From Bradyrhizobium sp. NDS-1 (GTDB lineage: Bacteria > Pseudomonadota > Alphaproteobacteria > Rhizobiales > Xanthobacteraceae), in NCBI RefSeq assembly GCF_032918005.1, contig NZ_CP136628.1:2961501-3025500 (forward strand): a stretch of 64,000 nt of DNA, written 5' to 3'. The notes below the pieces were generated by a model, which searched no databases, was not told the DNA's origin, and worked only from the letters and a program-made list of their open reading frames with translations. Shown piece after piece: positions 6,232-33,014 of the stretch (position 1 is the stretch's first letter; each line of letters opens with the position of its first letter). Both the position numbers and the translations under genes were made by a program.

Positions 6232-6252
6232 TTTGTTCAACGACACACATGG

Positions 6253-17414: not shown

Positions 17415-19298
17415 ATGTCGATCAGCAGCATCAACTACTCTTCGTCGGTTCTCGGCTCGCAGATCCGCAACATCAATCAGCAGCTCACCGACCTGTCGAC
17501 GCAGCTCTCGACCGGCAAGCTGTCGCAGAATTATGCCGGCATGGGCACCAACGAGGGCTTTGCGATCGCCGGGCGCGCGCAGCTCTCCAACATCGCCGCC
17601 TATACCGACACGATCACCAACGTCAATGTCAGCATCAACCTCGCCAACACCGCGCTGCAGTCGCTGACGAAGATACGCAGCACGGTGCAGACGGGCTCCG
17701 CCAACACCGCGCAGGATCTCAACGTCAACGGCCAGACCATCGCGCAGAACACCGCCGCAGCCCAATTCGGCTCGATGGTCGGCGTGCTCAACACGCAGAC
17801 CGGCAGCCGCTATCTGTTCTCGGGAACGGCCGTCAACACCCAGCCGGTTGCGGATGCCGGCGACATCATCAACGGCACGACCACCCAGGCGGGATTCAAG
17901 ACCGTGATGGCGGAGCGCCAAGCCGCCGATCTCGGCGCGAACGGCATGGGCCGCCTGGTGCAGACGCAGCCGACACCGAGCTCGGTTCAGGTGTCGGAGG
18001 ACGTCGCGGGCTCGCCGTTCGGCCTCAAGCTCAAGGCGGTCTCCTCGACGCTGACGGGCGCGACCATCACCGGCCCGAGCGGATCTCCGGTGTCGTTCTC
18101 GGTCGATCTCAACGGCATCAATCCGAACAACGGCGACAAGCTCAGCGTCCAGTTCACGCTGCCGGACGGCACGACCGAGCAGATCGACCTGACGGCGTCG
18201 ACGGCGACGCCGACGCCGCTCGGCAGCTTCGCGATCGATGCGAGTACCCCGGTCGACCCGAACAATACGGCCGCGAACCTCAACACGGCGCTGAACACCG
18301 CGATCACGAAGCTCGCCAACACCTCGCTGGTCGCGGCCTCCGCGGTCGTCGCCGGCGACAATTTCTTCAACACCGCCAGTTCTGCGATCGGCACGCCCGT
18401 CAACAACCAGGCGGCGCCGCCGGCGCCGATCAGCGGCGCGACGGCGCTGTCCGGCGCAAGCCCGTCGGACTCGATTTCGCCGGGCTTCGTCGCCGGCGAC
18501 ACCATCACCGTCAACGGCACCACGCTCACCTTCGTCAGTTCGGGCGCAACCGGCGACCAGCTCAACGTCACCGACAGCATCCAGACGCTGATGAGCAAGA
18601 TCGACGCGATCACGGGCACGTCGAAGCCGTCGACCGTCCATGGCGGCTCGATCACGATCAACACCGACGATGCGGCCAGCCTGAACATCACCAGCTCCAA
18701 TACGGGAGCGCTGGGTTCGCTTGGTTTCGGCGCGACGCCCGTGACCGCCACCCAGCCGCCGCTGCGCGTAGGCTCCTCGCCCGCGAGCTCGGCGACTACC
18801 CTGGTCAACGGTTCGGCCACCACCGTGAAATGGTACCAGGGCAATGACGGGCCCGGCTCGGCGCGCTCGACCGCGATGGCGCGGGTCGACGATGCCGTGA
18901 CGGTGCAGTATGGCGCCCAGGCGAATGAGGACGCGATCCGCCGGCAATTGCAGGCGACCGCCGTGTTCGGCACCTTCTCGACCTCGCCGACCGGCCAGTA
19001 TTCTGGCGGGCAGGTCGCCGCGCTGAGCCTGCGCGTGACGCAGGCGCTGACCCAGCAGCCTGGTCAGCAGCGCATCGAGGACATCCAGACCGACATCGCG
19101 ATGGCCCAGAACACGATGAAGGATGCGAGCACGCGCCAGACCCAGGCCAAGGCGCAAATTCAGACCATCATCGACCAGGCGGAATCGGCCTCGCCCGACC
19201 AGGTCGCGAGCGAGATCCTGGCGCTCCAGAACGCGCTGCAGGCCTCCTATCAGGTGACCTCGAACCTGGCGCAGCTCTCGCTCGTCAAGTTCCTTTAA
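17415..19298 (+). CDS. flgL: Hook-filament junction protein FlgL (HAP3), extended
   Basis: A 627-residue protein with FlgL/flagellin-like ends: N-terminal YSSSVLGSQIRNINQQLTDL with QLSTGKLSQNYAGMG, and C-terminal VASEILALQNALQASYQVTS ending LSLVKFL. It is about twice the length of enteric FlgL (~317 residues). The excess includes a module starting GDTITVNGTTLTF near residue 361, shared with FlgE and the flagellins. Its position as third gene after flgE and flgK supports FlgL over flagellin. The stop codon is embedded in the first TTAA of a triple CtrA-like element that precedes the next gene. Confidence 0.9.
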   Translation: MSISSINYSSSVLGSQIRNINQQLTDLSTQLSTGKLSQNYAGMGTNEGFAIAGRAQLSNIAAYTDTITNVNVSINLANTALQSLTKIRSTVQTGSANTAQDLNVNGQTIAQNTAAAQFGSMVGVLNTQTGSRYLFSGTAVNTQPVADAGDIINGTTTQAGFKTVMAERQAADLGANGMGRLVQTQPTPSSVQVSEDVAGSPFGLKLKAVSSTLTGATITGPSGSPVSFSVDLNGINPNNGDKLSVQFTLPDGTTEQIDLTASTATPTPLGSFAIDASTPVDPNNTAANLNTALNTAITKLANTSLVAASAVVAGDNFFNTASSAIGTPVNNQAAPPAPISGATALSGASPSDSISPGFVAGDTITVNGTTLTFVSSGATGDQLNVTDSIQTLMSKIDAITGTSKPSTVHGGSITINTDDAASLNITSSNTGALGSLGFGATPVTATQPPLRVGSSPASSATTLVNGSATTVKWYQGNDGPGSARSTAMARVDDAVTVQYGAQANEDAIRRQLQATAVFGTFSTSPTGQYSGGQVAALSLRVTQALTQQPGQQRIEDIQTDIAMAQNTMKDASTRQTQAKAQIQTIIDQAESASPDQVASEILALQNALQASYQVTSNLAQLSLVKFL

Positions 19299-19320
19299 GG
19301 CCGCGTTAAGACGCCGTTAA
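19295..19320 (+). promoter_or_regulatory. Triple CtrA-like half-sites (TTAA-N7-TTAA-N7-TTAA)
   Basis: TTAA at 19295, 19306 and 19317, each pair separated by exactly 7 bases, so two overlapping perfect CtrA consensus sites. The first overlaps the flgL stop. It lies about 50 bp upstream of the glycosyltransferase-like gene at 19370. Confidence 0.65.
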
Positions 19321-19369
19321 CCATGCCTCTTTACCTCTTGGTGAGGATTGGAGCGGGGCGGAGCTGCCG

Positions 19370-20155
19370 ATGTCGGACAAGATGCAATTGGTGGTGGCAA
19401 CGCCGTGCTTCGGCGGGCAGGTGTCGAGCATCTATGCGAGCTCGATCTTCGCGCTGCAGCGTGCCGTGCACGGCATGGCCAATCTCGAGCTCAAGGTGCT
19501 CCTGCGCGACGGCGACGCGCTGATCACCCGCGCCCGGGCCAATCTGGCCGCGATGTTCCTGGACGATCCCAAGGCGACCCATTTCCTGTTCATCGACGCC
19601 GATATCGGCTTCAAGCCGGAGCAGGTGTTCCGGCTGATCGAATGCGGCGCGGACGTCGTCGCCGGCTGCTATCCGATCAAGCGGGTCAACTGGGACAAGG
19701 CGGCGCGGGCGATCCAGTCGGGCCGGGCCGACGTGCCGGCGGCTTCGCTGGACTACGTGCTCGAGATCGAGGATCCCGACCGTATCGTCGTGGTCAACGG
19801 CTTTACCCGCGTGCGCTATGCCGGCACGGGCTTCCTGATGATCCGGCGCCACGTGCTGGAGGCGATGTGCCGCCATCCGAATTATGCGAGCCTGCAATTC
19901 TTCCGCGAGCATTCGCACGATACGCTCGTCGCGAGCCAGAACCGGTTCGCGCTGTTCGAATGCATGATCGATCCGGCGACCGGCACGTACCTCTCCGAGG
20001 ACTTCGCCTTCTGCAAGCGCTGGACCGATATCGGCGGCGAGATCTGGGCCGACATCCAGAGTTCGCTCGATCACGTCGGACCGTCGGTGTTCCACGGCGA
20101 CATCGCCTCGCAATTCGCACCGGCGCCCGCGGCGGCGGCAGATGCCGCGGCGTGA
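19370..20155 (+). CDS. GT-A-fold glycosyltransferase-like protein in the flagellar cluster
   Basis: A 261-residue protein with a GT-A nucleotide-sugar transferase pattern. It has an N-terminal strand-loop (LVVATPCFGGQVSSIYASS), a central RARANLAAMFL helix, and a DxD motif in HFLFIDADIGFKP (Asp76-Ala-Asp78). A later AGTGFLMIRRHVLE strand precedes LSEDFAFCKRW (Glu210-Asp211), typical of family-2-like enzymes. No membrane segment is present, so it is probably cytosolic. The start is the ATG at 19370 behind GGAGC. It follows flgL and triple CtrA-like sites, and the next gene begins 10 bp later. Flagellin or hook glycosylation is a reasonable inference from position; donor and acceptor are unknown. 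Confidence 0.75.
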   Translation: MSDKMQLVVATPCFGGQVSSIYASSIFALQRAVHGMANLELKVLLRDGDALITRARANLAAMFLDDPKATHFLFIDADIGFKPEQVFRLIECGADVVAGCYPIKRVNWDKAARAIQSGRADVPAASLDYVLEIEDPDRIVVVNGFTRVRYAGTGFLMIRRHVLEAMCRHPNYASLQFFREHSHDTLVASQNRFALFECMIDPATGTYLSEDFAFCKRWTDIGGEIWADIQSSLDHVGPSVFHGDIASQFAPAPAAAADAAA

Positions 20156-20165
20156 GCCTGCCGGG

Positions 20166-21788
20166 ATGAGTGCCGGCGCATCCCATCCGTCAGAACCGGA
20201 ACGCGCATCCAACGGCGGCTCGCGCTACCACCTGCGCGATCTCTTCACACCGCTCGACACGCTGCTTGTCTCCGGCGGCGATCCTCGGCTGGCGCTCGAC
20301 CCGAGGAATCGCGCCAACGCCTATGGCTGCGCGGCCTCGCCGGAGCCGGAGATCTGGAATTTCGCCTCCTCGACCGCGTCGACGATCTCGCAAGCGGCCT
20401 ATGACCGCGCCGCGCTGGCGCGCGAAGAACTGATGCACAAATGCCTGTTCGACGAGGTCGAAATCGCATTCGATGCGCGCTGCGAGGAGATGCGAGAGGA
20501 GCTGCGCGGCCATCTCCAGCTTCCGCCGCGCGTCGATGTCGTGTTCTCGCCCTCCGGCACGGACTCCCAGATCCACGCCCTGTTCCTGGCGGGCGCGGCG
20601 CTCGGAGCGCGGCCGGTGACGATCGTGGTCGGGGCCGACCAGACCGGAAGCGGGACCACCCATACCGCCCGCGGGCACCATTTCAGCTCCATGACGGCGA
20701 GCGGAATTGCGGTTCGCAAGGACGGCGCGGTTGCGGGGCTCGCCGGATCCAGCATCGCGTTGCCGTTGCTCGGACCTGGGATCGCGATGCGCGCGGACGC
20801 CGATGCCGCGGTGCTGCATGCGATCGAGACCACGATCGGGCAAGGTGTGCCCGTGCTGCTCCAGATCATGGATTCCTCGAAGCTCGGGTGGCGTGCACCG
20901 AGCGCGGCCTGCCTCGATGAGATCGCGCGGCGCTGGCCGCGCAAGGTCCAGATCGTCGTCGACGCCTGTCAGGCCCGGCTCGGCCGCCGCCGGCTGCGCT
21001 CCTATCTCGACCGCGGCTATATGGTGCTGATGTCAGGCTCGAAATTTTTCGGTGGGCCTGCCTTCAGCGGTGCGCTGCTGGTGCCCAAGGGCCTCTCGCG
21101 ATCGCTCGAACGGGTCGAGAGAATAGCGCCCGGCATCTTCGACTATGCCGGCCGTTGCGATTGGCCGATGGCCTGGACGGCGCTGCGTTCGCGCTTCGAG
21201 CGCCGTCCGAACTTCGGCCAATGGCTGCGCTGGGAGGCAGCGCTTGCCGAGATCGGCAGCTACTACGCCGTGCCGGGCGCTTTCCGCGCCAAGGTGCTGG
21301 CCGAACTCGCCGCCGGCATCGACAGCATGATCGCGTTGTCGCCGTCGCTTCGCTCCGTTCCAGGCGCGGCCAGGACGGCGAACGTGGATGACGAGGAATT
21401 TGCGCAAACCACGATCTTTCCGTTCATGCTGTTGCGCGGCGGAAAACCGGTTCCGATCGCCGAGACCAGCGCGATTCATCGGGCGATGGCACGTGACATG
21501 AACGAGGAGATCAGCGGCAGCGCGGCGGACCGGCAGGTCGCCGCGCAGCGCTGCCTGATCGGCCAGCCGGTCCGTTTGGAGCGGCAGGATTGGGCATCGC
21601 AGGCCGTGCTGCGCCTTTGCGTCGGCGCCCGGCTCGTGACCGAGATCTGGTCGCCGGACGCGGCGGAGGCGGGGCGCAACGTGCAGCGCGTGCTCGATCG
21701 CATCGCCCATGTCCTGGTAAAGATCGAGCTGCTGCTTGACCGTGGCGCAGCCGCGGCCGTGCCGTTAAACTCCGCGTTCGAGGTGTGA
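20166..21788 (+). CDS. Fold-type I PLP-dependent protein of unknown reaction
   Basis: About 540 residues with the layout of an aspartate-aminotransferase-fold PLP enzyme. The phosphate-cup-like FSPSGTDSQIHALFL is at about 127-141. IVVDACQARLGRRRLRSYL gives the PLP-ring aspartate (Asp266) and a following glutamine. MSGSKFFGGPAFSGALLVP gives the probable Schiff-base Lys293. The sequence resembles class V or kynureninase-like enzymes only in these motifs, and I cannot name a substrate. The N-terminal ~60 residues and C-terminal domain are not recognisable. The start ATG 20166 is 10 bp after the glycosyltransferase-like gene, and the following ATP-grasp gene begins 1 bp after its stop, indicating translational coupling. 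Confidence 0.75.
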   Translation: MSAGASHPSEPERASNGGSRYHLRDLFTPLDTLLVSGGDPRLALDPRNRANAYGCAASPEPEIWNFASSTASTISQAAYDRAALAREELMHKCLFDEVEIAFDARCEEMREELRGHLQLPPRVDVVFSPSGTDSQIHALFLAGAALGARPVTIVVGADQTGSGTTHTARGHHFSSMTASGIAVRKDGAVAGLAGSSIALPLLGPGIAMRADADAAVLHAIETTIGQGVPVLLQIMDSSKLGWRAPSAACLDEIARRWPRKVQIVVDACQARLGRRRLRSYLDRGYMVLMSGSKFFGGPAFSGALLVPKGLSRSLERVERIAPGIFDYAGRCDWPMAWTALRSRFERRPNFGQWLRWEAALAEIGSYYAVPGAFRAKVLAELAAGIDSMIALSPSLRSVPGAARTANVDDEEFAQTTIFPFMLLRGGKPVPIAETSAIHRAMARDMNEEISGSAADRQVAAQRCLIGQPVRLERQDWASQAVLRLCVGARLVTEIWSPDAAEAGRNVQRVLDRIAHVLVKIELLLDRGAAAAVPLNSAFEV

Positions 21789-21789
21789 G

Positions 21790-23043
21790 ATGCAGCATCC
21801 GGTTTCCGCGCCCATCGGCATGATTGCGGCGAACTATGCCGACCGCATCGGCTTTGCGGAGCTGACGCGCCGGGCCTTCGAAGGCGTCGACCTGCATCCG
21901 TTGCGCGACCAGCTCGTCGCGCGGATCGCGGCGGGGACCGCGCTCGCGGGCGAAGCGCTGGATCTGTCGTTGGTCAACCAGCTTCTCGGCGACAAGGATC
22001 AAGGGCTCGCGATCCAGTCGGAGGTGCTCGCCTTCCATCAATTGTTTCGCACGCCGAGCGCTGCTCCGAAACCGGGCCTGCGCGTGCTCGCGCTTGCAGC
22101 CGACATCGATATGGGCGGCAACACGCCGATCGATTTTCTGCTCGAAGGCTCCGACGTCGAGCTGTTGACGCTCTACGTTATCAAGGGCGTCGGTCTGCCG
22201 GAGAATTTGCCCGAGCACGACGTTGCCATCGTGGTCGCCTCCGATTCCGAGGAATGCCGCGAGGCGCTCGCCTTGATCGCGAAGGCCGCGCCGCACTGGC
22301 CGCGACCGCTGCTCAATCGTCCCGACCGCATCGGCAATCTCGATCGCGACAAGTTGTATCGGCTGCTGGCCGGCGTGCCGGGCCTCGACATTCCCGCGAC
22401 CATCCACGCGACGCGCGCGCAATTATCGGATCTTTCGCGAGAGCAGATCGCTTGCGTGGACATTGCGGATGAGCTGCGCTTTCCGATGATCGCGCGGCCG
22501 CGCGGCTCGCATGCCGGCGTCGGGCTCGCGAAGCTCGACGATGCGGCTGCGCTCGCGGCTTATCTTTCGGGGCGGGACGAACAGGATTTCTTCGTCGCGC
22601 GCTTCGTCGACTATGTGAACCCGGACGGGCTCTACCGCAAATATCGTCTCGCGATGGTCGACGGCAAGCCTTACGCCTGCCACATGGCGATCGCCGACCG
22701 CTGGGATATCTGGTATCTCAACGCCTACATGGCGTTCAGCGAGGAGAAGCGGGCCGAGGAAGCCGTCTTCATGCGCGAGTTCGACAACGCCTTCGCGGCA
22801 CGCCACAGACGCGCGCTCGACGAGATGAGCAGGCGGGTCGGCCTCGATTATTTCATCGTCGATTGCGCCGAGAACCAGCAGGGCGAGCTTCTGGTCTTCG
22901 AAGCCGACAACACCGCCGTCGTGCACAACATGGATTCGCCGGACGTGTTTCCTTACAAGCCGCCGCAGATGCGCAGGATCTTCGCGGCGTTCTCGACGAT
23001 GCTGTCGCGGCATGCAAGAGTAGGCGAGGGGCGCGCAACATGA
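21790..23043 (+). CDS. ATP-grasp family ligase-like protein
   Basis: A 417-residue protein whose C-terminal ~240 residues form an ATP-grasp domain. Visible parts are a substrate/pre-ATP segment (RPLLNRPDRIGNLDRDKLY), the nucleotide-binding strand and loop (FPMIARPRGSHAGVGLAKL, 231-249), the hinge FFVARFVDY, an arginine/lysine patch (DGLYRKYRLAMVDGKPYACH), and the metal-binding end (LLVFEADNTAVVHNMD, with Glu371 and Asn374). The N-terminal half (about 95-165) is a Rossmann-like pre-domain. ATP-grasp enzymes join a carboxylate to an amine or thiol through an acyl-phosphate, so an amide-forming step is likely; substrates are unknown. Its stop overlaps the next gene's start (ATGA). Confidence 0.8.
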   Translation: MQHPVSAPIGMIAANYADRIGFAELTRRAFEGVDLHPLRDQLVARIAAGTALAGEALDLSLVNQLLGDKDQGLAIQSEVLAFHQLFRTPSAAPKPGLRVLALAADIDMGGNTPIDFLLEGSDVELLTLYVIKGVGLPENLPEHDVAIVVASDSEECREALALIAKAAPHWPRPLLNRPDRIGNLDRDKLYRLLAGVPGLDIPATIHATRAQLSDLSREQIACVDIADELRFPMIARPRGSHAGVGLAKLDDAAALAAYLSGRDEQDFFVARFVDYVNPDGLYRKYRLAMVDGKPYACHMAIADRWDIWYLNAYMAFSEEKRAEEAVFMREFDNAFAARHRRALDEMSRRVGLDYFIVDCAENQQGELLVFEADNTAVVHNMDSPDVFPYKPPQMRRIFAAFSTMLSRHARVGEGRAT

Positions 23044-24539
23044 ACGAGATCATCCGCAACGCGCAAAGCGCCACTGCGCATGCCTCGCTCGACCCGCAGG
23101 ACTGGAGTGCGTTTCGCGCGCTCGCCCATCGCATGCTGGACGAGACGATCGACGGCATCGCCAACGTCCGCTCGCGTCCCGTCTGGCAGCCGATCCCCGA
23201 TGGCGTGCGTGCCGCATTCAAGGCCGACGTGCCGCGCGAGGCGAGCGACCTTGCCGAAGTCTATCGCGAGTTCGCCGAACACATCGCTCCCTATGCGACC
23301 GGCAACGTCCATCCCGGCTTCATGGGCTGGGTGCATGGCGGCGGCACCGCGGTCGGCATGCTCGCGGAAATGCTCGCAGCCGGCCTCAACGCCAATCTCG
23401 GCGGGCGGGATCACATGCCGATCGAGGTCGAGCGTCAGATCGTCGACTGGATGCGGCGCCTGTTCGCCTTTCCGGAGAGCGCGAGCGGCATCTTCGTCAC
23501 GGGCACGTCGATGGCCAATCTGATGGCGGTGCTGGTGGCGCGCACGGCTGCGCTCGGCACGCTGGCGCGGCAGTACGGCATCGGCAATGACGGTGCGCTG
23601 CTCACGGCCTACACGTCGCAGGCCGCGCATGGCTGCGTCTCCAGGGCGATGGACATTGCCGGGCTCGGCACCGATGCGCTGCGCAAGATCGGCGTCGATA
23701 CCGATCATCGCATCGACGTCGCGGCGCTGCGCGCGCAGATCACCGTTGATCGCGAAGTCGGCTTCAAGCCGTTCCTGGTCGTCGCGTCCGCCGGCACGGT
23801 GGACATCGGTGCGATCGACGACCTCAAGGCGATCGCGGAGCTGTGTCGAGAGGAAGGCATCTGGTTTCACGTCGACGGCGCTTTCGGTGCGCTCGCGATT
23901 CTCTCGCCCGAGCTCGCGCCACAGCTCGGCGGCATCGAGCTTGCCGATTCCATTGCACTCGATTTCCACAAATGGGGACAGGTGCCCTACGATGCCGGCT
24001 TCCTGCTGGTGCGTGACGGCGAGCAGCATCGGCAGGCCTTTGCGCAGCCGGCGGCCTATCTGCGCCGCGAGGCGAGGGGGCTTGCGGCGGGGGCCGTCTG
24101 GCCCTGCGATCTCGGACCTGATCTGTCGCGCGGCTTCCGCGCGCTGAAGACGTGGTTCACGCTGAAGACGTTCGGCACCGACCGGCTGGGTGCGACGATT
24201 GCGCGGAGCTGCGCGCTGGCGAAGTATCTCGAAACGCGCGTGCTGGCCGAGCCGCGGCTGGAATTGCTGGCTCCGGTCAACCTCAACATCGTCTGCTTCC
24301 GCTACCGCGCCGATGATGCGGCCAATCGCGAGATCGTCGCCGACATTCAAGAGTCCGGAATTGCAGCGCCCTCGAGCACGACGCTGGACGGCAGGTTTGC
24401 GATCCGTGCCGCGATCGTCAATCACCGCACCGAGGAGGCGGACATCGACGCGCTGGTCGCGGCGGTGCTGGACTTCGGCAGTCGGCGCTGCGGCGACGAT
24501 GTGATCGAGATCGAGGCGCCGCCGCTCGCGGCGCAATAG
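23040..24539 (+). CDS. Group II PLP-dependent amino-acid decarboxylase
   Basis: A 499-residue member of the aromatic-amino-acid / diaminobutyrate / glutamate decarboxylase family. Key features are NVHPGFMGWVHGGGTAVGML (substrate-side region), FVTGTSMANLMAVLVAR, the PLP-stacking histidine in SQAAHGCVSRA (His197), WFHVDGAFGA with the pyridine-contacting Asp279, and the Schiff-base lysine in LDFHKWGQVPYDAGFLLV (Lys311). Length and motif order are normal. The start ATG at 23040 overlaps the ATP-grasp stop (ATGA). It is the last gene of the cassette and converges on flbT. Making an amine for the neighbouring ATP-grasp protein is an attractive inference, but the amino acid is not predictable. Confidence 0.85.
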   Translation: MNEIIRNAQSATAHASLDPQDWSAFRALAHRMLDETIDGIANVRSRPVWQPIPDGVRAAFKADVPREASDLAEVYREFAEHIAPYATGNVHPGFMGWVHGGGTAVGMLAEMLAAGLNANLGGRDHMPIEVERQIVDWMRRLFAFPESASGIFVTGTSMANLMAVLVARTAALGTLARQYGIGNDGALLTAYTSQAAHGCVSRAMDIAGLGTDALRKIGVDTDHRIDVAALRAQITVDREVGFKPFLVVASAGTVDIGAIDDLKAIAELCREEGIWFHVDGAFGALAILSPELAPQLGGIELADSIALDFHKWGQVPYDAGFLLVRDGEQHRQAFAQPAAYLRREARGLAAGAVWPCDLGPDLSRGFRALKTWFTLKTFGTDRLGATIARSCALAKYLETRVLAEPRLELLAPVNLNIVCFRYRADDAANREIVADIQESGIAAPSSTTLDGRFAIRAAIVNHRTEEADIDALVAAVLDFGSRRCGDDVIEIEAPPLAAQ

Positions 24540-24614: not shown

Positions 24615-25055
24615 TCAGGCGGCGGAGCTCACGTCGTCCTTGTCCGCTTCGGCCTTCGGATGGGCGGCCTCGAATTGGCTCCGCAGCTTCTCTTCATAGG
24701 CGATCAGCTTGCGGGCATCCTTCAGTGCCCGGTAGAGGTCGCCGTTCAGGATGTTGTTGTTGATGGCTTCGATGATCGGCCAGGCGCTCGGCACCGCGGT
24801 GACGATGTCGCGCACCAGGTTGAAATAGGTGCCGTGCTGCGTCTGCGGATCCGGCGAGATGTACATGAGCTGCACCGCCAGATAGACGAGCTTGGCCGGC
24901 GTATCGGCGGTCTGGGGCGTGAGGATGTCGCGCTCGCGCAGGATCGGTACGTTGTCGCCGTCGATCAGGAGGCGGGCGCGCTGGTCCGTGTTGGTAATCA
25001 CGCAGTTGCCGACGATGATACGTTCGTGCGGTCTGAGCTCGACCTTGAGGGCCAT
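24615..25055 (-). CDS. flbT: Flagellar biosynthesis repressor FlbT
   Basis: A 146-residue FlbT. In Caulobacter and relatives FlbT binds flagellin mRNA leaders and limits translation or stability until the hook is complete. The family start MALKVELRPHERIIVGNCVI and the middle (LVYLAVQLMYISPDPQTQHG, NLVRDIVTAVPSAWPIIEAI) are well kept, and the tail is variable and acidic. Divergent from the first flagellin gene, with a CtrA-like site about 80 bp upstream of its start. FlaF, its functional antagonist, lies beyond the four flagellins. Confidence 0.92.
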   Translation of the reverse strand: MALKVELRPHERIIVGNCVITNTDQRARLLIDGDNVPILRERDILTPQTADTPAKLVYLAVQLMYISPDPQTQHGTYFNLVRDIVTAVPSAWPIIEAINNNILNGDLYRALKDARKLIAYEEKLRSQFEAAHPKAEADKDDVSSAA

Positions 25056-25146: not shown

Positions 25147-25266
25147 TCCCGTGCGTTAGCGCGGAAAAACCCAGTGTTTCCAATGTTGTGGCGGGGTGGT
25201 GGCGCGGCGCCGCGCGCGGCGTCCACCGCCGAATCACACGCCACCCGGCAAAAGCACGGGTTTCAT

Positions 25267-25281
25267 TTCATGTTTCGTTAG
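25267..25281 (+). promoter_or_regulatory. Degenerate CtrA-like site upstream of flagellin 1
   Basis: TTCA-TGTTTCG-TTAG, which keeps the N7 spacing of the CtrA dyad, 109 bp before the flagellin ATG. Equivalent sequences occur 97 and 93 bp before flagellins 2 and 3. A perfect version lies about 109 bp before flagellin 4. Confidence 0.4.
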
Positions 25282-25375
25282 AGGTCTCGGCGCCACGGTC
25301 CGCCGTCGCTGGGTCGATCTCGATCCAAGCAGACGTGTAACAGTAAGCGTCGTTTACCAGAAAGGTAACAGAGTC

Positions 25376-27655
25376 ATGTCCGGTATCGTTCTCTCCGCAT
25401 CGGTTCGCCAGAACCTGCTCTCCCTCCAGTCCACCGCTGACCTCCTCGCCACCACGCAGAACCGTCTGTCGACCGGCAAGAGCGTCAACTCGGCCCTGGA
25501 CAATCCCACCAACTTCTTCACGGCCCAGTCGCTCGACAACCGCGCCAGCGACATCAACAATCTGCTCGACGGTATCGCCAACGGCGTGCAGGTGCTGCAG
25601 GCTGCCAACACCGGCATCACCTCGCTTCAGAAGCTGATCGACAGCGCCAAGTCGATCGCCAACCAGGCGCTGCAGACCACGGTCGGCTATTCCACCAAGT
25701 CCAACGTTTCCGCCACCATCTCCGGTGCAACGGCGGCTGACCTGCGTGGCACGACGAGCTTCGCCAGCGCGACGGCGAGCAGCAACGTGGTGTTCAGCGG
25801 CGCTGCCGGCGGCACGACGGCTGCGAGCGGCACCACGACGCTCGGCGCCACCATCGGCGCCTTCGCGGGCACCGCGGCAACGGCCGGCGACGGCACCACG
25901 GCCCTGACCGGCACCATCACGCTGATCGCCACCAACGGCACGACCGCCACCGGTCTGGCGAGCAACGCTCAGCCCGCCGATGGCGACACGCTGACCGTGA
26001 ACGGCAAGACCATCACCTTCCGCAGCGGTTCCGCTCCGGCCTCGAGCGGCGTTCCGTCCGGCTCGGGCGTCAGCGGCAACCTCGTCACCGACGGCAGCGG
26101 CAACACCACCATCTATCTCGGCACGGCCGGCACCCCGACTGCGAACGTCAACGACCTGTTGACCGCGGTCGATCTGGCCAGCGGCGTCAAGACGGTCTCC
26201 ATCAGCGCCGGTGCTGCGACGATTGCGACGAGCAACAACCAGACCGCTTCGAGCGTTGGCGGCGGTGCCGTCACACTGAGAAGCTCGACGGGTGCGGATC
26301 TCAGCGTCACCGGCAAGGCCGACCTGCTCAAGTCTCTCGGCCTGAGCGCATCGGTCGGTGGCGGCAACGCCACGGTGACCGTCAACCGGACCACGACCGC
26401 AGCCTCGCTCGGTGCGACGATCACCGACGGTTCGACGCTGAATGTCAACGGTCACGTCATCACCTTCAAGAACGCGCCGATCCCGGGCTCGACCGGTGCT
26501 CCGAGCGTTCCGACAGGATTTGGCGCCAACGGCAACGTCCTCACCGACGGCGCCGGCAACTCGACGGTCTATCTGCAGGGCGGCACGGTCAACGACGTCC
26601 TGAAGGCGATCGACCTGGCCACCGGCGTGCAGACCGCGACGGTCAACGCCAACGGCACCGCGACGCTTGCGACGGCCTCCGGCCAGACCAACTCGTCGAT
26701 CAACGCCTCGGGCCAGCTCAAGCTCTCGACCGGCGTTAACGCCGATCTGTCGATCACCGGTACCGGCAACGCGCTGAACGCGCTTGGCCTCGCCGGCAAC
26801 ACCGGGACGGCGACCGCGTTCACCGCGGCCCGCACCTCCGGCGTCGGCGGTATCAGCGGCAAGACCTTGACCTTCTCCTCCTTCAACGGCGGCACGGCGG
26901 TCAACGTCACCTTCGGCGACGGCACCAACGGCACGGTCAAGACGCTCGATCAGCTCAACACCAAGCTGCAGGCCAACAACCTGTCTGCGACGATCGACGC
27001 CAACGGCCTGCTGACCATCTCGACCACCAACGACTACGCGTCCTCGACCATCGGATCGAGCGCCGCAGGTGGTGCGATCGGCGGCACGCTGACCTCGTCG
27101 CTGACCTTCTCGACGGCTTCCACTCCCGTCCAGGATACGGTTGCACAGACCTCGCGTGCGAACCTGGTCTCTCAGTACAACAACATCCTGAACCAGATCG
27201 ACACGACGGCGCAGGACTCCTCGTTCAACGGTGTCAACCTCTTGAACGGCGACCAGCTCAAGCTGGTGTTCGACGAGACCGGCAAGTCGAACCTGAGCAT
27301 CACGGGCGTGACCTACAACTCCAAGGGTCTGGGCCTTGCTGCGCTGACCAGCGGTGTCGACTTCATCGACAACGCTGCCACCAACAAGGTGCTGACCAAC
27401 CTGAACGCCGCGTCGAGCACGCTGCGCTCGGAAGCCTCGGCCCTCGGTTCGAACCTCTCGGTGGTGCAGGTTCGTCAGGACTTCAACAAGAGCCTGATCA
27501 ACGTGCTGCAGACCGGTTCGGCCAACCTGACGCTGGCCGACACCAACACCGAAGCGGCCAACAGCCAGGCGCTGTCGACCCGCCAGTCCATCGCGGTCTC
27601 CGCGCTGTCGCTGGCCAACCAGTCGCAGCAGAGCGTGCTGCAGCTGCTCCGCTAA
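25376..27655 (+). CDS. fliC: Flagellin 1 (first of four tandem copies)
   Basis: A 759-residue filament protein. The first ~110 residues form flagellin D0/D1 (SASVRQNLLSLQSTADLLAT, LSTGKSVNSALDNPTNFFTA), and the last ~170 residues the C-terminal D1/D0 (QVRQDFNKSLINVLQTGSAN ending SQQSVLQLLR). The middle holds three related beta modules starting near DGDTLTVNGKTITF, DGSTLNVNGHVITF and ISGKTLTFSSFNGG. The start is the ATG at 25376 after AAAGGTAA; the in-frame extension to 25196 is proline- and arginine-rich and non-flagellin. It is nearly identical to copies 2 and 3. Codon use is strongly biased, as expected for a highly expressed gene. Control probably involves FlbT/FlaF. Confidence 0.93.
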   Translation: MSGIVLSASVRQNLLSLQSTADLLATTQNRLSTGKSVNSALDNPTNFFTAQSLDNRASDINNLLDGIANGVQVLQAANTGITSLQKLIDSAKSIANQALQTTVGYSTKSNVSATISGATAADLRGTTSFASATASSNVVFSGAAGGTTAASGTTTLGATIGAFAGTAATAGDGTTALTGTITLIATNGTTATGLASNAQPADGDTLTVNGKTITFRSGSAPASSGVPSGSGVSGNLVTDGSGNTTIYLGTAGTPTANVNDLLTAVDLASGVKTVSISAGAATIATSNNQTASSVGGGAVTLRSSTGADLSVTGKADLLKSLGLSASVGGGNATVTVNRTTTAASLGATITDGSTLNVNGHVITFKNAPIPGSTGAPSVPTGFGANGNVLTDGAGNSTVYLQGGTVNDVLKAIDLATGVQTATVNANGTATLATASGQTNSSINASGQLKLSTGVNADLSITGTGNALNALGLAGNTGTATAFTAARTSGVGGISGKTLTFSSFNGGTAVNVTFGDGTNGTVKTLDQLNTKLQANNLSATIDANGLLTISTTNDYASSTIGSSAAGGAIGGTLTSSLTFSTASTPVQDTVAQTSRANLVSQYNNILNQIDTTAQDSSFNGVNLLNGDQLKLVFDETGKSNLSITGVTYNSKGLGLAALTSGVDFIDNAATNKVLTNLNAASSTLRSEASALGSNLSVVQVRQDFNKSLINVLQTGSANLTLADTNTEAANSQALSTRQSIAVSALSLANQSQQSVLQLLR

Positions 27656-27683
27656 CGAGCGGACGACATCGCAAGACGATCAC

Positions 27684-27717
27684 GGCGGCGGGGCTTCGGC
27701 CCCGCCGCTTTGTTTTT
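27684..27717 (+). terminator. Terminator of flagellin 1
   Basis: GC-rich hairpin GCGGGGC-TTCG-GCCCCGC followed by a T-rich tract. The sequence from the flagellin stop through this hairpin is repeated almost exactly after flagellin 2. Confidence 0.85.
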
Positions 27718-27921
27718 GCAACGGCATCAAGGTGCCGCTCGGCGAGGCCGGAGTGCATGCGTTCGGATGCAGCGAATTGCTCACTCTGAGTTATGGTTGA
27801 TAAGTCGCAAATGCCTCGCCGCTGCACCAAAAAGCATCATTCTATCATGACGATATAGGCGAGCACGATCCGGCTCCGAACGCGCGTATGGTGAATCCGG
27901 GCAAGGACTGCCGCGACACGC

Positions 27922-27936
27922 TTCATGCTTTGTTAG
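27922..27936 (+). promoter_or_regulatory. Degenerate CtrA-like site upstream of flagellin 2
   Basis: TTCA-TGCTTTG-TTAG with N7 spacing, 97 bp before the ATG. The rest of the ~360 bp between flagellins 1 and 2 holds the terminator and no gene. Confidence 0.4.
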
Positions 27937-28018
27937 CCGTCTGCGTTCACCGTCCCGGCATCGATTAATCCTAATCGAAGTTTGTTTGTTGCGTTGCGTA
28001 CCAGAAGGGTAACACTCA

Positions 28019-30298
28019 ATGTCCGGTATCGTCCTCTCCTCGTCGGTTCGTCAGAACCTGCTCTCCCTCCAGTCCACCGCTGACCTCCTCGCCACCACAC
28101 AGAGCCGTCTGTCGACCGGCAAGAGCGTCAACTCGGCCCTGGACAATCCCACCAACTTCTTCACCGCACAGTCGCTCGACAACCGCGCCAGCGACATCAA
28201 CAATTTGCTCGACGGCATCGCCAACGGCGTGCAGGTGCTGCAGGCCGCCAACACCGGCATCACCTCGCTGCAGAAGCTGATCGACAGCGCCAAGTCGATC
28301 GCCAACCAGGCGCTGCAGACCACGGTCGGCTACTCCACCAAGTCGAACGTCTCGACCACCATCTCCGGTGCGACGTCGGCCGATCTGCGCGGCACGACCA
28401 GCTTCGCCAGCGCGACCGCGAGCAGCAACGTGCTGTATAGCGGTGCTGCCGGCGGCACGACGGCTGCGAGCGGCACCACGACGCTCGGCGCCACCATCGG
28501 CGCCTTCGCGGGCACCGCGGCAACGGCCGGCGACGGCACCACGGCCCTGACCGGCACCATCACGCTGATCGCCACCAACGGCACCACCGCAACCGGTCTG
28601 GCGAGCAACGCTCAGCCCGCCGATGGCGACACGCTGACCGTGAACGGCAAGACCATCACCTTCCGCAGCGGTTCCGCTCCGGCGGCGGCCAGCGTTCCGA
28701 CCGGCTCGGGCGTCAGCGGCAACCTCGTCACCGACGGCAACGGCAACACCACGGTCTATCTCGGCACGGCCGGCACCCCGACTGCGACCGTCAACGACCT
28801 GTTGACCGCGGTCGATCTCGCCAGCGGCGTCAAGACGGTCGCCATCAGCGCCGGTGCTGCGACGATCGCCACGAGCAACAACCAGACCGCTTCGAGCGTT
28901 GGCGGCGGTGCCGTCACACTGAGGAGCTCGACGGGTGCGGATCTCAGCGTCACCGGCAAGGCCGACCTGCTCAAGTCTCTTGGCCTGAGCGCATCGGTCG
29001 GCGGCGGCAACGCCACGGTGTCCGTCAACCGGACCACGACCGCAGCCTCGCTCGGTGCGACGATCACCGACGGTTCGACATTGAACGTCAACGGTCACGT
29101 CATCACCTTCAAGAACGCGCCGATCCCGGGCTCGACCGGTGCTCCCAGCGTTCCGACAGGATTTGGCGCCACCGGCAACGTCCTCACCGACGGCGCCGGC
29201 AACTCGACGGTCTATCTGCAGGGCGGCACGGTCAACGACGTCCTGAAGGCGATCGACCTGGCCACCGGCGTGCAGACCGCGACGATCGGCGCCAACGGCA
29301 CCGCGACGCTTGCGACGGCCTCCGGCCAGACCAACTCGTCGATCAACGCCTCGGGCCAGCTCAAGCTCTCGACCGGCGTTAACGCCGACCTGTCGGTCAC
29401 CGGCACCGGCAATGCGCTGAATGCGCTTGGCCTCGCCGGCAACACCGGGACTGCGACCGCCTTCACAGCGGCCCGCACCTCCGGCGTCGGCGGTATCAGC
29501 GGCAAGACCTTGACCTTCACCTCCTTCAACGCAGGCACGGCGGTCAACGTCACCTTCGGCGACGGCACCAACGGCACGGTCAAGACGCTCGATCAGCTCA
29601 ACACCAAGCTGCAGGCCAACAACCTGTCTGCGACGATCGACGCCAACGGCCTGCTGACGATCTCGACCACCAACGACTACGCGTCCTCGACCATCGGATC
29701 GAGCGCCGCAGGTGGTGCGATCGGCGGTACGCTGACCTCGGCGCTGACCTTCTCGACGGCTTCCACTCCCGTCCAGGACGTCGTCGCACAGACCTCGCGT
29801 GCGAACCTGGTCTCTCAGTACAACAACATCCTGAACCAGATCGACTCGACGGCGCAGGACTCCTCGTTCAACGGCGTCAACCTGCTCAACGGCGACCAGC
29901 TCAAGCTGGTGTTCGACGAGACCGGCAAGTCGAACCTGAGCATCACGGGCGTGACCTACAACTCCAAGGGTCTGGGCCTTGCTGCGCTGACCAGCGGTGT
30001 CGACTTCATCGACAACGCTGCCACCAACAAGGTGCTGACCAACCTGAACGCCGCGTCGAGCACGCTGCGCTCGGAAGCCTCGGCTCTCGGCTCGAACCTG
30101 ACGATCGTGCAGGTTCGTCAGGACTTCAACAAGAACCTGATCAACGTGCTGCAGACCGGCTCGGCCAACCTGACGCTGGCCGACACCAACGTCGAGGCGG
30201 CCAACAGCCAGGCGCTGTCGACCCGCCAGTCCATCGCGGTCTCCGCGCTGTCGCTGGCCAACCAGTCGCAGCAGAGCGTGCTCCAGCTGCTCCGCTAA
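28019..30298 (+). CDS. fliC: Flagellin 2 (second of four tandem copies)
   Basis: A 759-residue flagellin differing from copy 1 at scattered positions only, for example SSSVRQN for SASVRQN at the start, YSGAAGG for FSGAAGG, and LTIVQVRQ for LSVVQVRQ near the end. It has the same D0/D1 ends and the same three internal beta modules. The ATG is preceded by GAAGGGTAACA. Its own leader and terminator suggest separate transcription. Near identity with copies 1 and 3 points to recent duplication or ongoing gene conversion. Confidence 0.93.
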   Translation: MSGIVLSSSVRQNLLSLQSTADLLATTQSRLSTGKSVNSALDNPTNFFTAQSLDNRASDINNLLDGIANGVQVLQAANTGITSLQKLIDSAKSIANQALQTTVGYSTKSNVSTTISGATSADLRGTTSFASATASSNVLYSGAAGGTTAASGTTTLGATIGAFAGTAATAGDGTTALTGTITLIATNGTTATGLASNAQPADGDTLTVNGKTITFRSGSAPAAASVPTGSGVSGNLVTDGNGNTTVYLGTAGTPTATVNDLLTAVDLASGVKTVAISAGAATIATSNNQTASSVGGGAVTLRSSTGADLSVTGKADLLKSLGLSASVGGGNATVSVNRTTTAASLGATITDGSTLNVNGHVITFKNAPIPGSTGAPSVPTGFGATGNVLTDGAGNSTVYLQGGTVNDVLKAIDLATGVQTATIGANGTATLATASGQTNSSINASGQLKLSTGVNADLSVTGTGNALNALGLAGNTGTATAFTAARTSGVGGISGKTLTFTSFNAGTAVNVTFGDGTNGTVKTLDQLNTKLQANNLSATIDANGLLTISTTNDYASSTIGSSAAGGAIGGTLTSALTFSTASTPVQDVVAQTSRANLVSQYNNILNQIDSTAQDSSFNGVNLLNGDQLKLVFDETGKSNLSITGVTYNSKGLGLAALTSGVDFIDNAATNKVLTNLNAASSTLRSEASALGSNLTIVQVRQDFNKNLINVLQTGSANLTLADTNVEAANSQALSTRQSIAVSALSLANQSQQSVLQLLR

Positions 30299-30326
30299 CA
30301 AGCGGACGACATCGCAAGACGATCAC

Positions 30327-30357
30327 GGCGGCGGGGCTTCGGCCCCGCCGCTTTTTT
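30327..30357 (+). terminator. Terminator of flagellin 2
   Basis: The same GCGGGGC-TTCG-GCCCCGC hairpin as after flagellin 1, followed here by a clean run of six T. Confidence 0.88.
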
Positions 30358-30531
30358 CATTCGTCACGCGACGTTTCGAGAGGTCGGGCCTCACTCCGAA
30401 AAAGTAACCAGGGGTTATGGTTAATGGAGCGTAAGCGCGAAGAAATACCAATGATTTCAGGTCGATTGTCGATCCCCTCGGTGCCTTGCCCACGCTTATG
30501 GTGAACCGGCGCTTATGCAGGCGAAGTTCGT

Positions 30532-30546
30532 TTCACCTTTTGTTAG
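30532..30546 (+). promoter_or_regulatory. Degenerate CtrA-like site upstream of flagellin 3
   Basis: TTCA-CCTTTTG-TTAG with N7 spacing, followed by CCAT, 93 bp before the flagellin 3 ATG. The remaining ~320 bp leader contains no gene. Confidence 0.4.
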
Positions 30547-30624
30547 CCATGTCGCGGCACGCTGGCCCCGTCACTCGATCCGAAGCGATCGAACGAAGAC
30601 GCGTAAGCCAGAAGGGTAAGAGTC

Positions 30625-32904
30625 ATGTCAGGTATTGTTCTCTCTGCGTCGGTTCGCCAGAACCTTCTCTCTCTCCAGTCCACCGCCGATCTTCTCGCCA
30701 CCACACAGAACCGTCTGTCGACCGGCAAGAGCGTCAACTCGGCCCTGGACAATCCCACCAACTTCTTCACGGCACAGTCGCTCGACAACCGCGCCAGCGA
30801 CATCAACAATTTGCTCGACGGCATCGCCAACGGCGTGCAGGTGCTGCAGGCCGCCAACACCGGCCTGACCTCGCTGCAGAAGCTGATCGACAGCGCCAAG
30901 TCGATCGCCAACCAGGCGCTGCAGACCACCGTCGGCTACTCCACCAAGTCCAACGTCTCCACCACGATCGCCGGTGCGACGGCGGCCGACCTGCGCGGTA
31001 CGACTTCGTTCGCCAGCGCGACCGCGAGCAGCAACGTGCTGTATAACGGCACGGCCGGCGGCACCACGGCGGCGAACGGCACCACGACGCTCGGCGCCAC
31101 CATCGGCGCCTTCACGGGCACTGCGGGAACGGCCGGCGACGGCACCACGGCCCTGACCGGCACCATCACGCTGATTGCCACCAACGGCACGACCGCCACC
31201 GGCCTCGCCAGCAACGCTCAGCCCGCCGACGGCGACACGCTGACGGTGAACGGCAAGACCATCACGTTCCGCAGCGGCGCTGCGCCGACGTCGGCGGGCG
31301 TTCCGGCCGGTTCGGGCGTCAGCGGCAATCTCGTCACCGACGGCAACGGCAACACCACGGTCTATCTCGGCACGGCCGGCACCCCGACTGCGACCGTCAA
31401 CGACCTGTTGACCGCGGTCGATCTCGCCAGCGGCGTCAAGACGGTCGCCATCAGTGCCGGTGCTGCGACGATTGCCACGAGCAACAACCAGACCGCTTCG
31501 AGCGTCGGCGGCGGTGCCGTCACGCTGAGAAGCTCGACGGGTGCGGATCTCAGCGTCACCGGCAGAGCCGACCTGCTCAAGTCTCTCGGCCTGAGCGCAT
31601 CGGTCGGCGGCGGCAATGCCACGGTGTCCGTCAACCGGACCACGACCTCGGCCTCGCTCGGTGCGACGATCACCGACGGTTCGACGCTGAACGTCAACGG
31701 TCACGTCATCACCTTCAAGAACGCGCCGATCCCCGGCTCGACCGGTGCTCCCAGCGTTCCGACAGGATTTGGCGCTACCGGCAACGTCCTCACCGACGGC
31801 AACGGCAACTCGACGGTCTATCTGCAGGGCGGCACGGTCAACGACGTCCTGAAGGCGATCGATCTGGCCACCGGCGTGCAGACCGCGACGATCGGCGCCA
31901 ACGGCACCGCGACGCTTGCGACCGCAACCGGTCAATCGAACTCCACGATCAATACGTCCGGTCAGCTCAAACTCTCGACCGGCATCAATGCCGATCTGTC
32001 AATCACCGGCAGCGGCAACGCGTTGAACGTGTTAGGCCTCGCCGGCAACACCGGTAGCGCGACTGCCTTTACTGCGGCCCGCACCTCCGGCATCGGCGGC
32101 ATCGCCGGGAAGACCTTGACCTTCACCTCCTTCAACGGCGGCACGGCGGTCAACGTCACCTTCGGCGACGGCACCAACGGCACGATCAAGACGCTCGATC
32201 AGCTCAACACCAAGCTGCAGGCCAACAACCTCGCCGCGACGATCGATGCCAACGGCCTGCTGACGATCACGGCCTCGAACGACTACGCGTCCTCGACGCT
32301 CGGCTCGACGGTGGCCGGCGGCGCGATCGGCGGCACGCTCACTTCGGCGCTGACCTTCTCGACGGCCTCCACCCCCGTCCAGGATGGCGTTGCCCAGACG
32401 GCGCGTGCCAATCTGGTGTCTCAGTTCAACAACATCCTGAACCAGATCGACACCACCGCGCAGGACTCCTCGTTCAACGGTGTCAACCTCTTGAACGGCG
32501 ATCAGCTCAAGCTAGTGTTCGACGAGACCGCTAAGTCGAGCCTGAACATCACGGGCGTGACCTATAATTCCAAGGGTCTCGGCCTCGCTGCGCTGACGAT
32601 CGGCGTCGACTTCATCGACAACGCCGCCGCCAACCGGGTGCTGACCAACCTGAACGCCGCCTCGAGCACGCTGCGCTCGCAGGCCTCGAGCCTCGGCTCG
32701 AACCTCTCGGTGGTGCAGATCCGTCAGGACTTCAACAAGAACCTGATCAACGTGCTGCAGACCGGTTCGTCCAACCTGACCCTGGCCGACACCAACGTCG
32801 AGGCGGCCAACAGCCAGGCGCTGTCGACCCGACAGTCGATCGCGGTCTCCGCGCTGTCGCTGGCCAACCAGTCGCAGCAGAGCGTGCTCCAGCTGCTCCG
32901 CTAA
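30625..32904 (+). CDS. fliC: Flagellin 3 (third of four tandem copies)
   Basis: A 759-residue flagellin with the same length and module order as copies 1 and 2. It is slightly more diverged in the third module and beyond (GTIKTLDQLNTKLQANNLAA, ASTLGSTVAGGAIGG for STIGSSAAGGAIGG). The ends keep the export and polymerisation helices. The start ATG follows GAAGGGTAAG. The mosaic pattern, with long identical runs and clustered differences, is what gene conversion between tandem copies would leave. Confidence 0.93.
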   Translation: MSGIVLSASVRQNLLSLQSTADLLATTQNRLSTGKSVNSALDNPTNFFTAQSLDNRASDINNLLDGIANGVQVLQAANTGLTSLQKLIDSAKSIANQALQTTVGYSTKSNVSTTIAGATAADLRGTTSFASATASSNVLYNGTAGGTTAANGTTTLGATIGAFTGTAGTAGDGTTALTGTITLIATNGTTATGLASNAQPADGDTLTVNGKTITFRSGAAPTSAGVPAGSGVSGNLVTDGNGNTTVYLGTAGTPTATVNDLLTAVDLASGVKTVAISAGAATIATSNNQTASSVGGGAVTLRSSTGADLSVTGRADLLKSLGLSASVGGGNATVSVNRTTTSASLGATITDGSTLNVNGHVITFKNAPIPGSTGAPSVPTGFGATGNVLTDGNGNSTVYLQGGTVNDVLKAIDLATGVQTATIGANGTATLATATGQSNSTINTSGQLKLSTGINADLSITGSGNALNVLGLAGNTGSATAFTAARTSGIGGIAGKTLTFTSFNGGTAVNVTFGDGTNGTIKTLDQLNTKLQANNLAATIDANGLLTITASNDYASSTLGSTVAGGAIGGTLTSALTFSTASTPVQDGVAQTARANLVSQFNNILNQIDTTAQDSSFNGVNLLNGDQLKLVFDETAKSSLNITGVTYNSKGLGLAALTIGVDFIDNAAANRVLTNLNAASSTLRSQASSLGSNLSVVQIRQDFNKNLINVLQTGSSNLTLADTNVEAANSQALSTRQSIAVSALSLANQSQQSVLQLLR

Positions 32905-32933
32905 TAAGCGATTGAAATTGCTGAATAAAAACG

Positions 32934-32969: not shown

Positions 32970-33014
32970 CGCCCTGGGCGGGCAGGGGCATTCACCGGCC
33001 ATTAACCCTGTCGT

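What the first reader, a model, noticed from the sequence alone, without database searches (positions are those of the whole stretch)
19295..24539. Unexplained four-gene cassette (GT-A, PLP enzyme, ATP-grasp, PLP decarboxylase) wired into the flagellar locus
Seen: a glycosyltransferase-like gene, then a fold-type I PLP protein, an ATP-grasp protein and a group II decarboxylase. Gaps are 10 bp, 1 bp and an ATGA overlap, all on one strand between flgL and flbT. Known: ATP-grasp proteins make amide-type bonds, group II decarboxylases make amines, and GT-A enzymes transfer sugars. Inference: the cassette makes and attaches an unusual amide- or amine-bearing group, perhaps to flagellin or hook protein, or makes a small molecule timed with flagellar assembly. 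No named pathway I know has this set of parts.
Basis: partly seen in the sequence, partly recalled or inferred. Interest (0 to 1): 0.75.

Follow-up and report, generated by a model that had tools for sequence, protein, structure and literature searches.

The report
CtrA-box enzyme cassette in flagellar locus
Soil bacteria of the genus Bradyrhizobium carry, between their flagellar filament genes, a little-studied set of enzymes that probably builds an amine- or amide-type chemical group in step with flagellum assembly, and the same enzyme set recurs elsewhere in related bacteria, so it looks like an unknown pathway rather than only a flagellar gene set.

Summary
The four genes are real and laid out as reported (gaps 10 and 1 bp, then an ATGA overlap) between flgL and flbT; flbT is on the other strand. 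The cassette is two things. (1) PLP + ATP-grasp-like + group II decarboxylase: a module linked in six sampled alphaproteobacterial families in varying gene order and fused in two ways (PLP-GRASP, DEC-GRASP). (2) A separately evolving, very conserved GT-like gene, not found beside the module in 24 loci outside Bradyrhizobium. In Bradyrhizobium the flgL-flbT site is a variable slot: full cassette, GRASP-DEC alone, versions with a FlmG-like TPR-glycosyltransferase, or empty. A CtrA-type box (TTAA-N7-TTAAC) lies upstream in 70 of 75 named loci and, with at most one mismatch, in 8 of 10 loci of other genera of the family (7 of these 8 away from flagellar genes), but in 0 of 12 regions of other families. 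Most likely: a CtrA-timed pathway making an amine-derived amide group for the flagellar surface, working like the ATP-grasp-dependent cap of C. difficile flagellin glycan; a diffusible product is the main rival. Substrates are unknown.

The parts
19306..19321 (+). CtrA-type box TTAAGACGCCGTTAAC (TTAA-N7-TTAAC, exact), ending 48 bp before the GT start; it opens a longer conserved stretch reaching to about 19349
   Evidence: consensus TTAA-N7-TTAA as printed in PMC11264516 (passages)
19370..20155 (+). GT: glycosyltransferase-like protein, 261 aa, with FIDADIGF (DxD-type, recalled label); very conserved; matches phrog_1574; class not established
20166..21788 (+). PLP: 540 aa, fold-type I, class-V-like PLP protein with invariant GSK (K293) and DxCQ (D266); no Pfam/NCBIfam family at E 0.1
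21790..23043 (+). GRASP: 417 aa ATP-grasp-like ligase, invariant FExDN near the C-terminus; no Pfam family at E 0.1
23040..24539 (+). DEC: 499 aa group II PLP decarboxylase (PF00282), invariant DFHKW lysine
17415..19298 (+). flgL (NCBIfam flagellin/FlgL models matched below cut-off; no Pfam hit at E 0.001), upstream border
24615..25055 (-). flbT, downstream border, converging on the cassette
25196..35418 (+). four large flagellin ORFs, each with two DUF1522 matches
   Evidence: three of the four scanned; eight DUF1522 matches in the genome, all here
33015..33041 (.). overlapping exact CtrA-type boxes upstream of the fourth flagellin gene (33124)

Best explanation
The triplet PLP-GRASP-DEC is an undescribed biosynthetic module. 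DEC makes an amine from an amino acid, GRASP uses ATP to join that amine (or another amino group) to a carboxylate as an amide, and the class-V-like PLP enzyme prepares or remodels a precursor. In Bradyrhizobium the module sits in a flagellin-modification slot between flgL and flbT, is switched on by CtrA with the filament genes, and its product caps a sugar that glycosyltransferases (the GT here, a FlmG-like TPR-GT in sister species) put on the subpolar flagellins or hook. Shown: gene set, conserved linkage, fusions, variable slot, conserved box. Inferred: every chemical step, CtrA binding, and the flagellar target.
For: Linkage: PLP, GRASP and DEC present in 80 of 80 fetched named loci, in seven g28/g46 loci, and in other gene orders in six loci of three further families (L179-L181, L184-L186). 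Fusions: PLP-GRASP in one 953-aa ORF (L019) and DEC-GRASP in one 884-aa ORF (L159). Active-site residues invariant in the 10-11 sequences aligned. Flagellar link: the Bradyrhizobium site; L020 (PLP-GRASP) between flagellins and FlbT; L157 of another family with PLP, flagellin, FlbT, GRASP and DEC within 7 kb. Slot variants incl. TPR-GT beside GT, GRASP and DEC (L161, L193, L194), GRASP-DEC only (L190), empty flgL-flbT (L187, L191). Box: exact upstream of GT in 70 of 75 named loci, against 0 of 78 for each of hook, flgK and flgL, 1 of 80 for PLP (a locus without GT) and 0 of 80 for GRASP and DEC; at most one mismatch in 8 of 10 loci of other genera of the family; 17 matches in the window, 0.33 expected. 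GRASP tree: the away group of g28/g46 is one branch (99/96) among flagellar rows, so relocation with the box kept is the simple reading. Precedents: flmG, flmA and neuB are CtrA-controlled in Caulobacter (PMC7591256, passages); the C. difficile ATP-grasp mutant (CDR20291_0245) has flagellin glycan not extended past the trisaccharide (PMC5207246, passages), the normal cap being taurine-Ala-Gly (PMC5207245, passages).
Against: Of 24 loci examined outside Bradyrhizobium only 2 (L020, L157), or 3 with L158's flagellin-like hit about 9 kb off, are beside flagellar genes; of the 15 with all three genes, one (L157). Box with at most one mismatch: 0 of 12 start regions from other families, and not in the two distant PLP-DEC loci of the own family (L027, L028), nor in 5 of 6 non-standard Bradyrhizobium slots. 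DUF1522 flagellins occur without the PLP gene in 10 of 34 genomes (at least 3 of these 10, G157, G177 and G602, keep GRASP), and PLP without DUF1522 in 6 of 30, two of these under 90% complete. PLP is lost or broken while its neighbours stay (L190, L192, L194). GT does not travel with the triplet. Exact boxes in this genome also precede genes with no evident motility role. A PLP paralogue lies next to an NRPS gene, so the family also serves other small molecules.
Confidence: 0.48

Rival explanations
1. The triplet makes a free, diffusible small molecule (signal, osmolyte or cofactor) that is wanted in the motile cell stage; CtrA only times it, and no flagellar protein is decorated.
For: Most loci outside Bradyrhizobium are away from flagellar genes; seven g28/g46 loci have the box without flagellar neighbours; in 5 of 6 g28 loci the unit follows an ORF of chemoreceptor form, the one scanned having Cache, HAMP and MCP domains; a PLP paralogue adjoins an NRPS gene.
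Against: Placement at flagellin-FlbT loci in three settings (Bradyrhizobium, L020, L157), and slot variants mixed with glycosyltransferase-like genes. No transporter or regulator gene in the cassette.
Confidence: 0.32
2. Passenger module: a housekeeping-type pathway that happens to sit in the flagellar locus and uses its promoter, without a role in motile cells.
For: Empty sites and partial losses show that it is dispensable (L187, L191, L190, L192); several genera carry it elsewhere.
Against: The box is kept in the relocated g28/g46 units and is conserved in 70 of 75 named loci; flagellar placement in another family.
Confidence: 0.13
3. The box is not a CtrA site but another conserved promoter element.
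For: CtrA binding was not tested; the conserved stretch is longer than the box; some exact copies precede genes without evident motility or cell-cycle role.
Against: It equals the printed consensus TTAA-N7-TTAA (PMC11264516, passages); exact copies in this genome precede genes for FliO, a flagellin, MinC, a sigma-70 factor and a histidine kinase; minCD and flagellin genes are direct CtrA targets in S. meliloti (PMC4433202, passages); 33 matches against 14 for the reversed pattern.
Confidence: 0.12

Closest known systems
Clostridioides difficile type B flagellin modification locus (taurine-containing peptidylamido-glycan; CDR20291_0244-0247)
   Same: Glycosyltransferases and an ATP-grasp protein at a flagellin locus; in the ATP-grasp mutant the glycan is not extended past the trisaccharide (PMC5207246, PMC5207245, passages).
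   Different: There the partners are a FemAB-type acyltransferase and an ornithine cyclodeaminase/alanine dehydrogenase homologue; no decarboxylase is mentioned in either text (0 occurrences). The ATP-grasp there is PF13535; GRASP here matches no Pfam family at E 0.1.
Caulobacter FlmG/FlmAB/NeuB flagellin glycosylation
   Same: Alphaproteobacterial, CtrA-controlled flagellin modification (PMC7591256, passages); Bradyrhizobium slot variants hold a TPR + GT9-like protein of FlmG-like build.
   Different: The window cassette has no TPR-GT; pseudaminic acid genes were not searched for; the passages read name no decarboxylase or ATP-grasp partner.
Methanofuran/methylofuran pathway (MfnA tyrosine decarboxylase + MfnD ATP-grasp ligase)
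   Same: Same logic, decarboxylase plus ATP-grasp ligase making an amide of an amine (MfnD and this logic recalled, from no call).
   Different: DEC scores 89.2 bits against the MfnA cut-off of 299.4.
Group II decarboxylases (aromatic amino acid, cysteine sulfinate, glutamate, diaminobutyrate)
   Same: DEC belongs to this superfamily; best solved relative 4obu (298.6 bits with the family profile).
   Different: Below the cut-off of every NCBIfam equivalog that it matched, so the substrate is open.

Membership tests
Group II PLP decarboxylase (PF00282) | Pfam gathering score of PF00282 | tested here: met
   222.5 bits, cut-off 27; DFHKW lysine invariant in 11 sequences
L-2,4-diaminobutyrate decarboxylase (NF052646), PanP (TIGR03799), MfnA (TIGR03812) | NCBIfam equivalog cut-offs | tested here: not met
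   181.7 of 900, 130.1 of 606.1, 89.2 of 299.4 bits
Fold-type I PLP enzyme, class-V group | fold and Schiff-base lysine | tested here: met
ATP-grasp superfamily | recognised ATP-grasp sequence profile | tested here: inconclusive
   no Pfam hit at E 0.1; rimK_fam 15.6 bits, cut-off 143.4; D-Ala ligase E 0.012 with the family profile; named so by sources. Structure not predicted.
GT-A glycosyltransferase | GT-A profile or fold | tested here: inconclusive
CtrA regulon | TTAA-N7-TTAA box at the promoter | tested here: met
CtrA regulon | CtrA binding and CtrA-dependent transcription | not testable with these tools
   needs ChIP or reporter assays
FlmG-type flagellin glycosylation system | TPR-GT protein in the cassette | tested here: not met
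   tblastn of three TPR-GT proteins against the window and the loci held: GT part found at L161, L193 and L194 only. The rest of this genome was not searched.
C. difficile type B flagellin cap locus | ATP-grasp PF13535 and FemAB PF02388 proteins | tested here: not met
   no such Pfam hit in the four proteins at E 0.1
Flagellin modification system | modified flagellin that depends on the genes | not testable with these tools
   needs mass spectrometry of mutants

The most novel reading that the evidence does not exclude
GRASP acts on protein: a carboxylate-amine ligase, with a TPR-bearing paralogue in the same genus, couples the amine made by DEC straight onto side-chain or glycan carboxylates of flagellin/hook, a CtrA-timed amide modification of a bacterial flagellum built with two enzyme families (PLP, GRASP) that Pfam and NCBIfam do not name.
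Probability: 0.13. Interest if true: 0.85.

Novelty: new variant of a known kind. Interest (0 to 1): 0.56.

Why it matters
If right, soybean-type rhizobia decorate their main flagellum with an amine-derived group made by enzymes outside the curated families searched, at a set cell-cycle time. Flagellin is a plant immune target, so the group could bear on recognition, adhesion, phage binding or filament stiffness. Even if the product is diffusible, the fused and relinked triplet defines a three-enzyme pathway of unknown substrate that simple in vitro tests could find, and its promoter box makes the timing directly testable.

Tried and rejected
Tried without result: papers naming bll5850 (0 papers) or six neighbouring tags (0); ATP-grasp + flagellin + decarboxylase (7 papers, listing only, no title or abstract start on such a cassette); Bradyrhizobium + flagellin glycosylation (8 papers, listing); flagellin modification (30 papers, 15 listed). 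These searches are the whole basis for saying that I found no print on this cassette; the library lacks most subscription journals. Rhodopseudomonas + CtrA + flagell (10 papers, listing) showed nothing on a regulon there. Passages of PMC6406911 and PMC8585493 did not mention these genes under the terms tried. The PADLOC scan failed on a coordinate slip and was not repeated. The GT model is too poor to use.

Considered and rejected: the four genes as one indivisible unit (GT separates); a pathway strictly tied to DUF1522 flagellins; diaminobutyrate, PanP or MfnA identity for DEC (cut-offs not met). The apparent internal stop in PLP of L118, L124, L128, L130 and L138 is only an earlier C-terminal stop.

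Rows dropped or limits: G084 (partial PLP hit, E 3e-4; its stretch L029 was fetched) was left out of the contexts and of the 14 PLP genomes; G428 (61 positions, E 6e-4) was not fetched; the distant PLP paralogues of G163 and G593 and the 50-residue remnant of G157 count as PLP-negative, and GT counts only at E below 1e-120. Flagellar genes near loci were sought by tblastn with window proteins (and with L157's for L177-L186), so very divergent ones can be missed; L184 (6.3 kb), L186 (10.5 kb) and L182 (16.7 kb) have short flanks. The lone-PLP loci L160, L177, L182 and L183 were not tested for the box. Relatives were capped at 80 of 407. GT proteins 84% identical are listed from Rhodopseudomonas, so GT is not confined to Bradyrhizobium.
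Full report
WHAT IS THERE. Window 19370-24539 holds four ORFs on the + strand: GT (19370-20155), PLP (20166-21788), GRASP (21790-23043) and DEC (23040-24539), with gaps of 10 bp, 1 bp and an ATGA overlap. Upstream are hook, flgK and flgL; downstream, on the other strand, flbT, then four large flagellin ORFs. The genome has eight DUF1522 matches, all in this flagellin array, two per ORF. The genome is a Bradyrhizobium: the PLP protein is 98% identical to one of B. tunisiense and 100% to one of B. diazoefficiens SZCCT0449. By the size and number of its flagellins the locus is that of the thick subpolar flagellum, whose FliC1-4 in USDA 110 are bll5843-5846 (PMC4823718, passages); two PLP orthologues are named Bll5850.

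THE TRIPLET IS A MODULE. Of 80 named loci fetched (best 80 of 407; 76 with a Bradyrhizobium name), 80 have PLP, GRASP and DEC, 77 have GT, 78 FlgL, 78 FlbT; each has at least one flagellar gene. In a family sample 15 of 149 genomes match PLP, one only partially; in an order sample 19 of 397; in a class sample 7 of 385, one only partially. Outside Bradyrhizobium I read 24 loci: 15 have all three genes (L019, L021-L026, L157, L159, L179-L181, L184-L186), L020 has PLP-GRASP, L027 and L028 PLP-DEC, L178 PLP-DEC with a TPR-bearing GRASP relative 3 kb off, and L158, L160, L177, L182 and L183 PLP only. The full triplets span six families. Gene order is PLP-GRASP-DEC in g28/g46, GRASP-PLP-DEC in L179-L181 and L185, DEC-GRASP-PLP in L184 and L186. 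PLP-GRASP form one ORF of 953 aa in L019 and DEC-GRASP one of 884 aa in L159. Linkage in varying order plus two fusions is good evidence that the three act on a common substrate line.

THE FLAGELLAR SLOT. In Bradyrhizobium the flgL-flbT interval varies: GT-PLP-GRASP-DEC (window type); PLP-GT-GRASP-DEC (L163); GRASP, TPR-GT, GT, GRASP, DEC (L161, L193); TPR-GT, GT, GRASP, DEC (L194); GRASP-DEC only (L190); GT, PLP remnant, GRASP, DEC (L192); nothing (L187, L191; flbT itself is broken in L191). The TPR-GT of L161 has TPR repeats and a GT9-like end, the build of Caulobacter FlmG, a TPR domain that binds flagellin plus a GT-B domain (PMC7591256, passages). Across 60 Bradyrhizobium genomes PLP and GT co-occur (29 both, 1 PLP only, 6 GT only, 24 neither), PLP and DUF1522 less so (24, 6, 10, 20) (from; Fisher p 7e-10 and 6e-4, relatedness not corrected). 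Outside Bradyrhizobium, 2 of the 24 loci (L020, L157), or 3 with L158, adjoin flagellar genes. GT was found in 4 of 19 genomes searched for it, one at 77% identity, the others distant or partial.

THE BOX. An exact TTAA-N7-TTAAC lies at 19306-19321. The window has 17 matches at up to one mismatch (8 places by my merging) where shuffles give 0.33. The genome has 33 exact matches, 26 places by my merging, against 14 matches for the reversed pattern; three of the places are in this window, 0.84% of the genome. I scanned 10 ORFs near other exact boxes: 7 had a Pfam hit, namely FliO, MinC, a sigma-70 factor and a histidine kinase, but also a HAMP/cyclase, a Tlde1-domain and a hydroxylase-type protein. 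In named loci the box is exact upstream of GT in 70 of 75; the other five are one first-half mismatch (L144, L146), one second-half mismatch (L103) and two truncated GT genes (L097, L101); upstream of hook, flgK and flgL it is found in 0 of 78 each, of PLP in 1 of 80, of GRASP and DEC in 0 of 80; three loci without GT have it 184-208 bp upstream of PLP. Those controls are mostly inside operons, so they are not matched promoters. In other genera of the family 8 of 10 loci have it with at most one mismatch (L019-L026; per locus 0 to 2 of 300 shuffles do as well); L027 and L028 do not. In other families 0 of 12 start regions have it, and of six non-standard Bradyrhizobium slots one (L192). The consensus TTAA-N7-TTAA is as printed in PMC11264516 (passages). 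CtrA itself was not tested.

HISTORY. A GRASP tree (32 rows; bootstrap not settled) places the seven away-from-flagella units of g28/g46 on one branch (99/96) among flagellar rows, and the flagellar L157 among away units of other families; starred branches force at least two changes. The simple reading is two separate flagellar placements and one later move that kept the box. Long branches make the place of L157 unsure. FlbT is present in all 14 family-sample genomes with PLP (G084 set aside), against 113 of 149 overall, a weak association.

HOW IT MOST LIKELY WORKS (inferred). DEC yields an amine; GRASP makes an amide with it; PLP prepares a precursor; a glycosyltransferase places the sugar that is capped; CtrA times expression with the filament. 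The best precedent is C. difficile type B flagellin, whose glycan ends in a taurine-Ala-Gly cap, and whose GT3, ATP-grasp (CDR20291_0245) and cyclodeaminase-like (0246) mutants have glycans not extended past the trisaccharide (PMC5207245, PMC5207246, passages). A review suggests, without data, that the B. diazoefficiens subpolar flagellum may be glycosylated (PMC8429497, passages). I give this 0.48. The diffusible-product rival (0.32) is fed by the away-from-flagella majority and by the chemoreceptor and NRPS neighbours.

VERDICT. A real, conserved module that I found described nowhere in the searches made, with two families outside Pfam and NCBIfam; the flagellar role is likely in Bradyrhizobium but is neither general nor shown.

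Noticed in passing
L195:9913-11352: A PLP-family paralogue (33% identity) lies directly after an NRPS gene (98-9904; Pfam: three Condensation, three AMP-binding, three PP-binding stretches and a Thioesterase) in a Bradyrhizobium that also has the flagellar copy.
   Followed up: partly
L162:8683-10347 and 10589-12148: Two divergent genes in one Bradyrhizobium whose C-terminal parts resemble GRASP (35% and 29% identity); the first carries TPR repeats by Pfam, the second was not scanned. A similar TPR-bearing one lies near PLP-DEC in L178.
   Followed up: partly
window:25196-27655: The first flagellin ORF probably starts about 60 codons too early at GTG 25196: its Flagellin_N match begins at residue 73, against 13 in the second flagellin.
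   Followed up: no
window:19370-20155: GT matches phrog_1574 (unknown function, E 1.7e-32), so relatives of this GT are carried by phages.
   Followed up: no
L021-L024, L026: In five of six g28 loci the unit follows an ORF of chemoreceptor form; the one scanned (L021:7173-8954) has sCache, HAMP and MCP domains, and in L021 a PPK2 gene follows the unit.
   Followed up: partly
window:13222-19298; L017, L018, L161, L163: Hook protein and FlgL share an internal repeated domain: tblastn with either finds the middle of the other at about 35-58% identity.
   Followed up: no
L158:9105-11309: PLP homologue in a 734-aa ORF with about 180 extra N-terminal residues and no Pfam hit, about 9 kb from a flagellin-like hit.
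   Followed up: no
window:55664-55679: Another exact CtrA-type box, between a fliO-like gene and a divergent ORF without Pfam hit.
   Followed up: partly
L191:9756-10182: flbT is split over two frames in one Bradyrhizobium (G122) whose flgL-flbT slot is empty.
   Followed up: no
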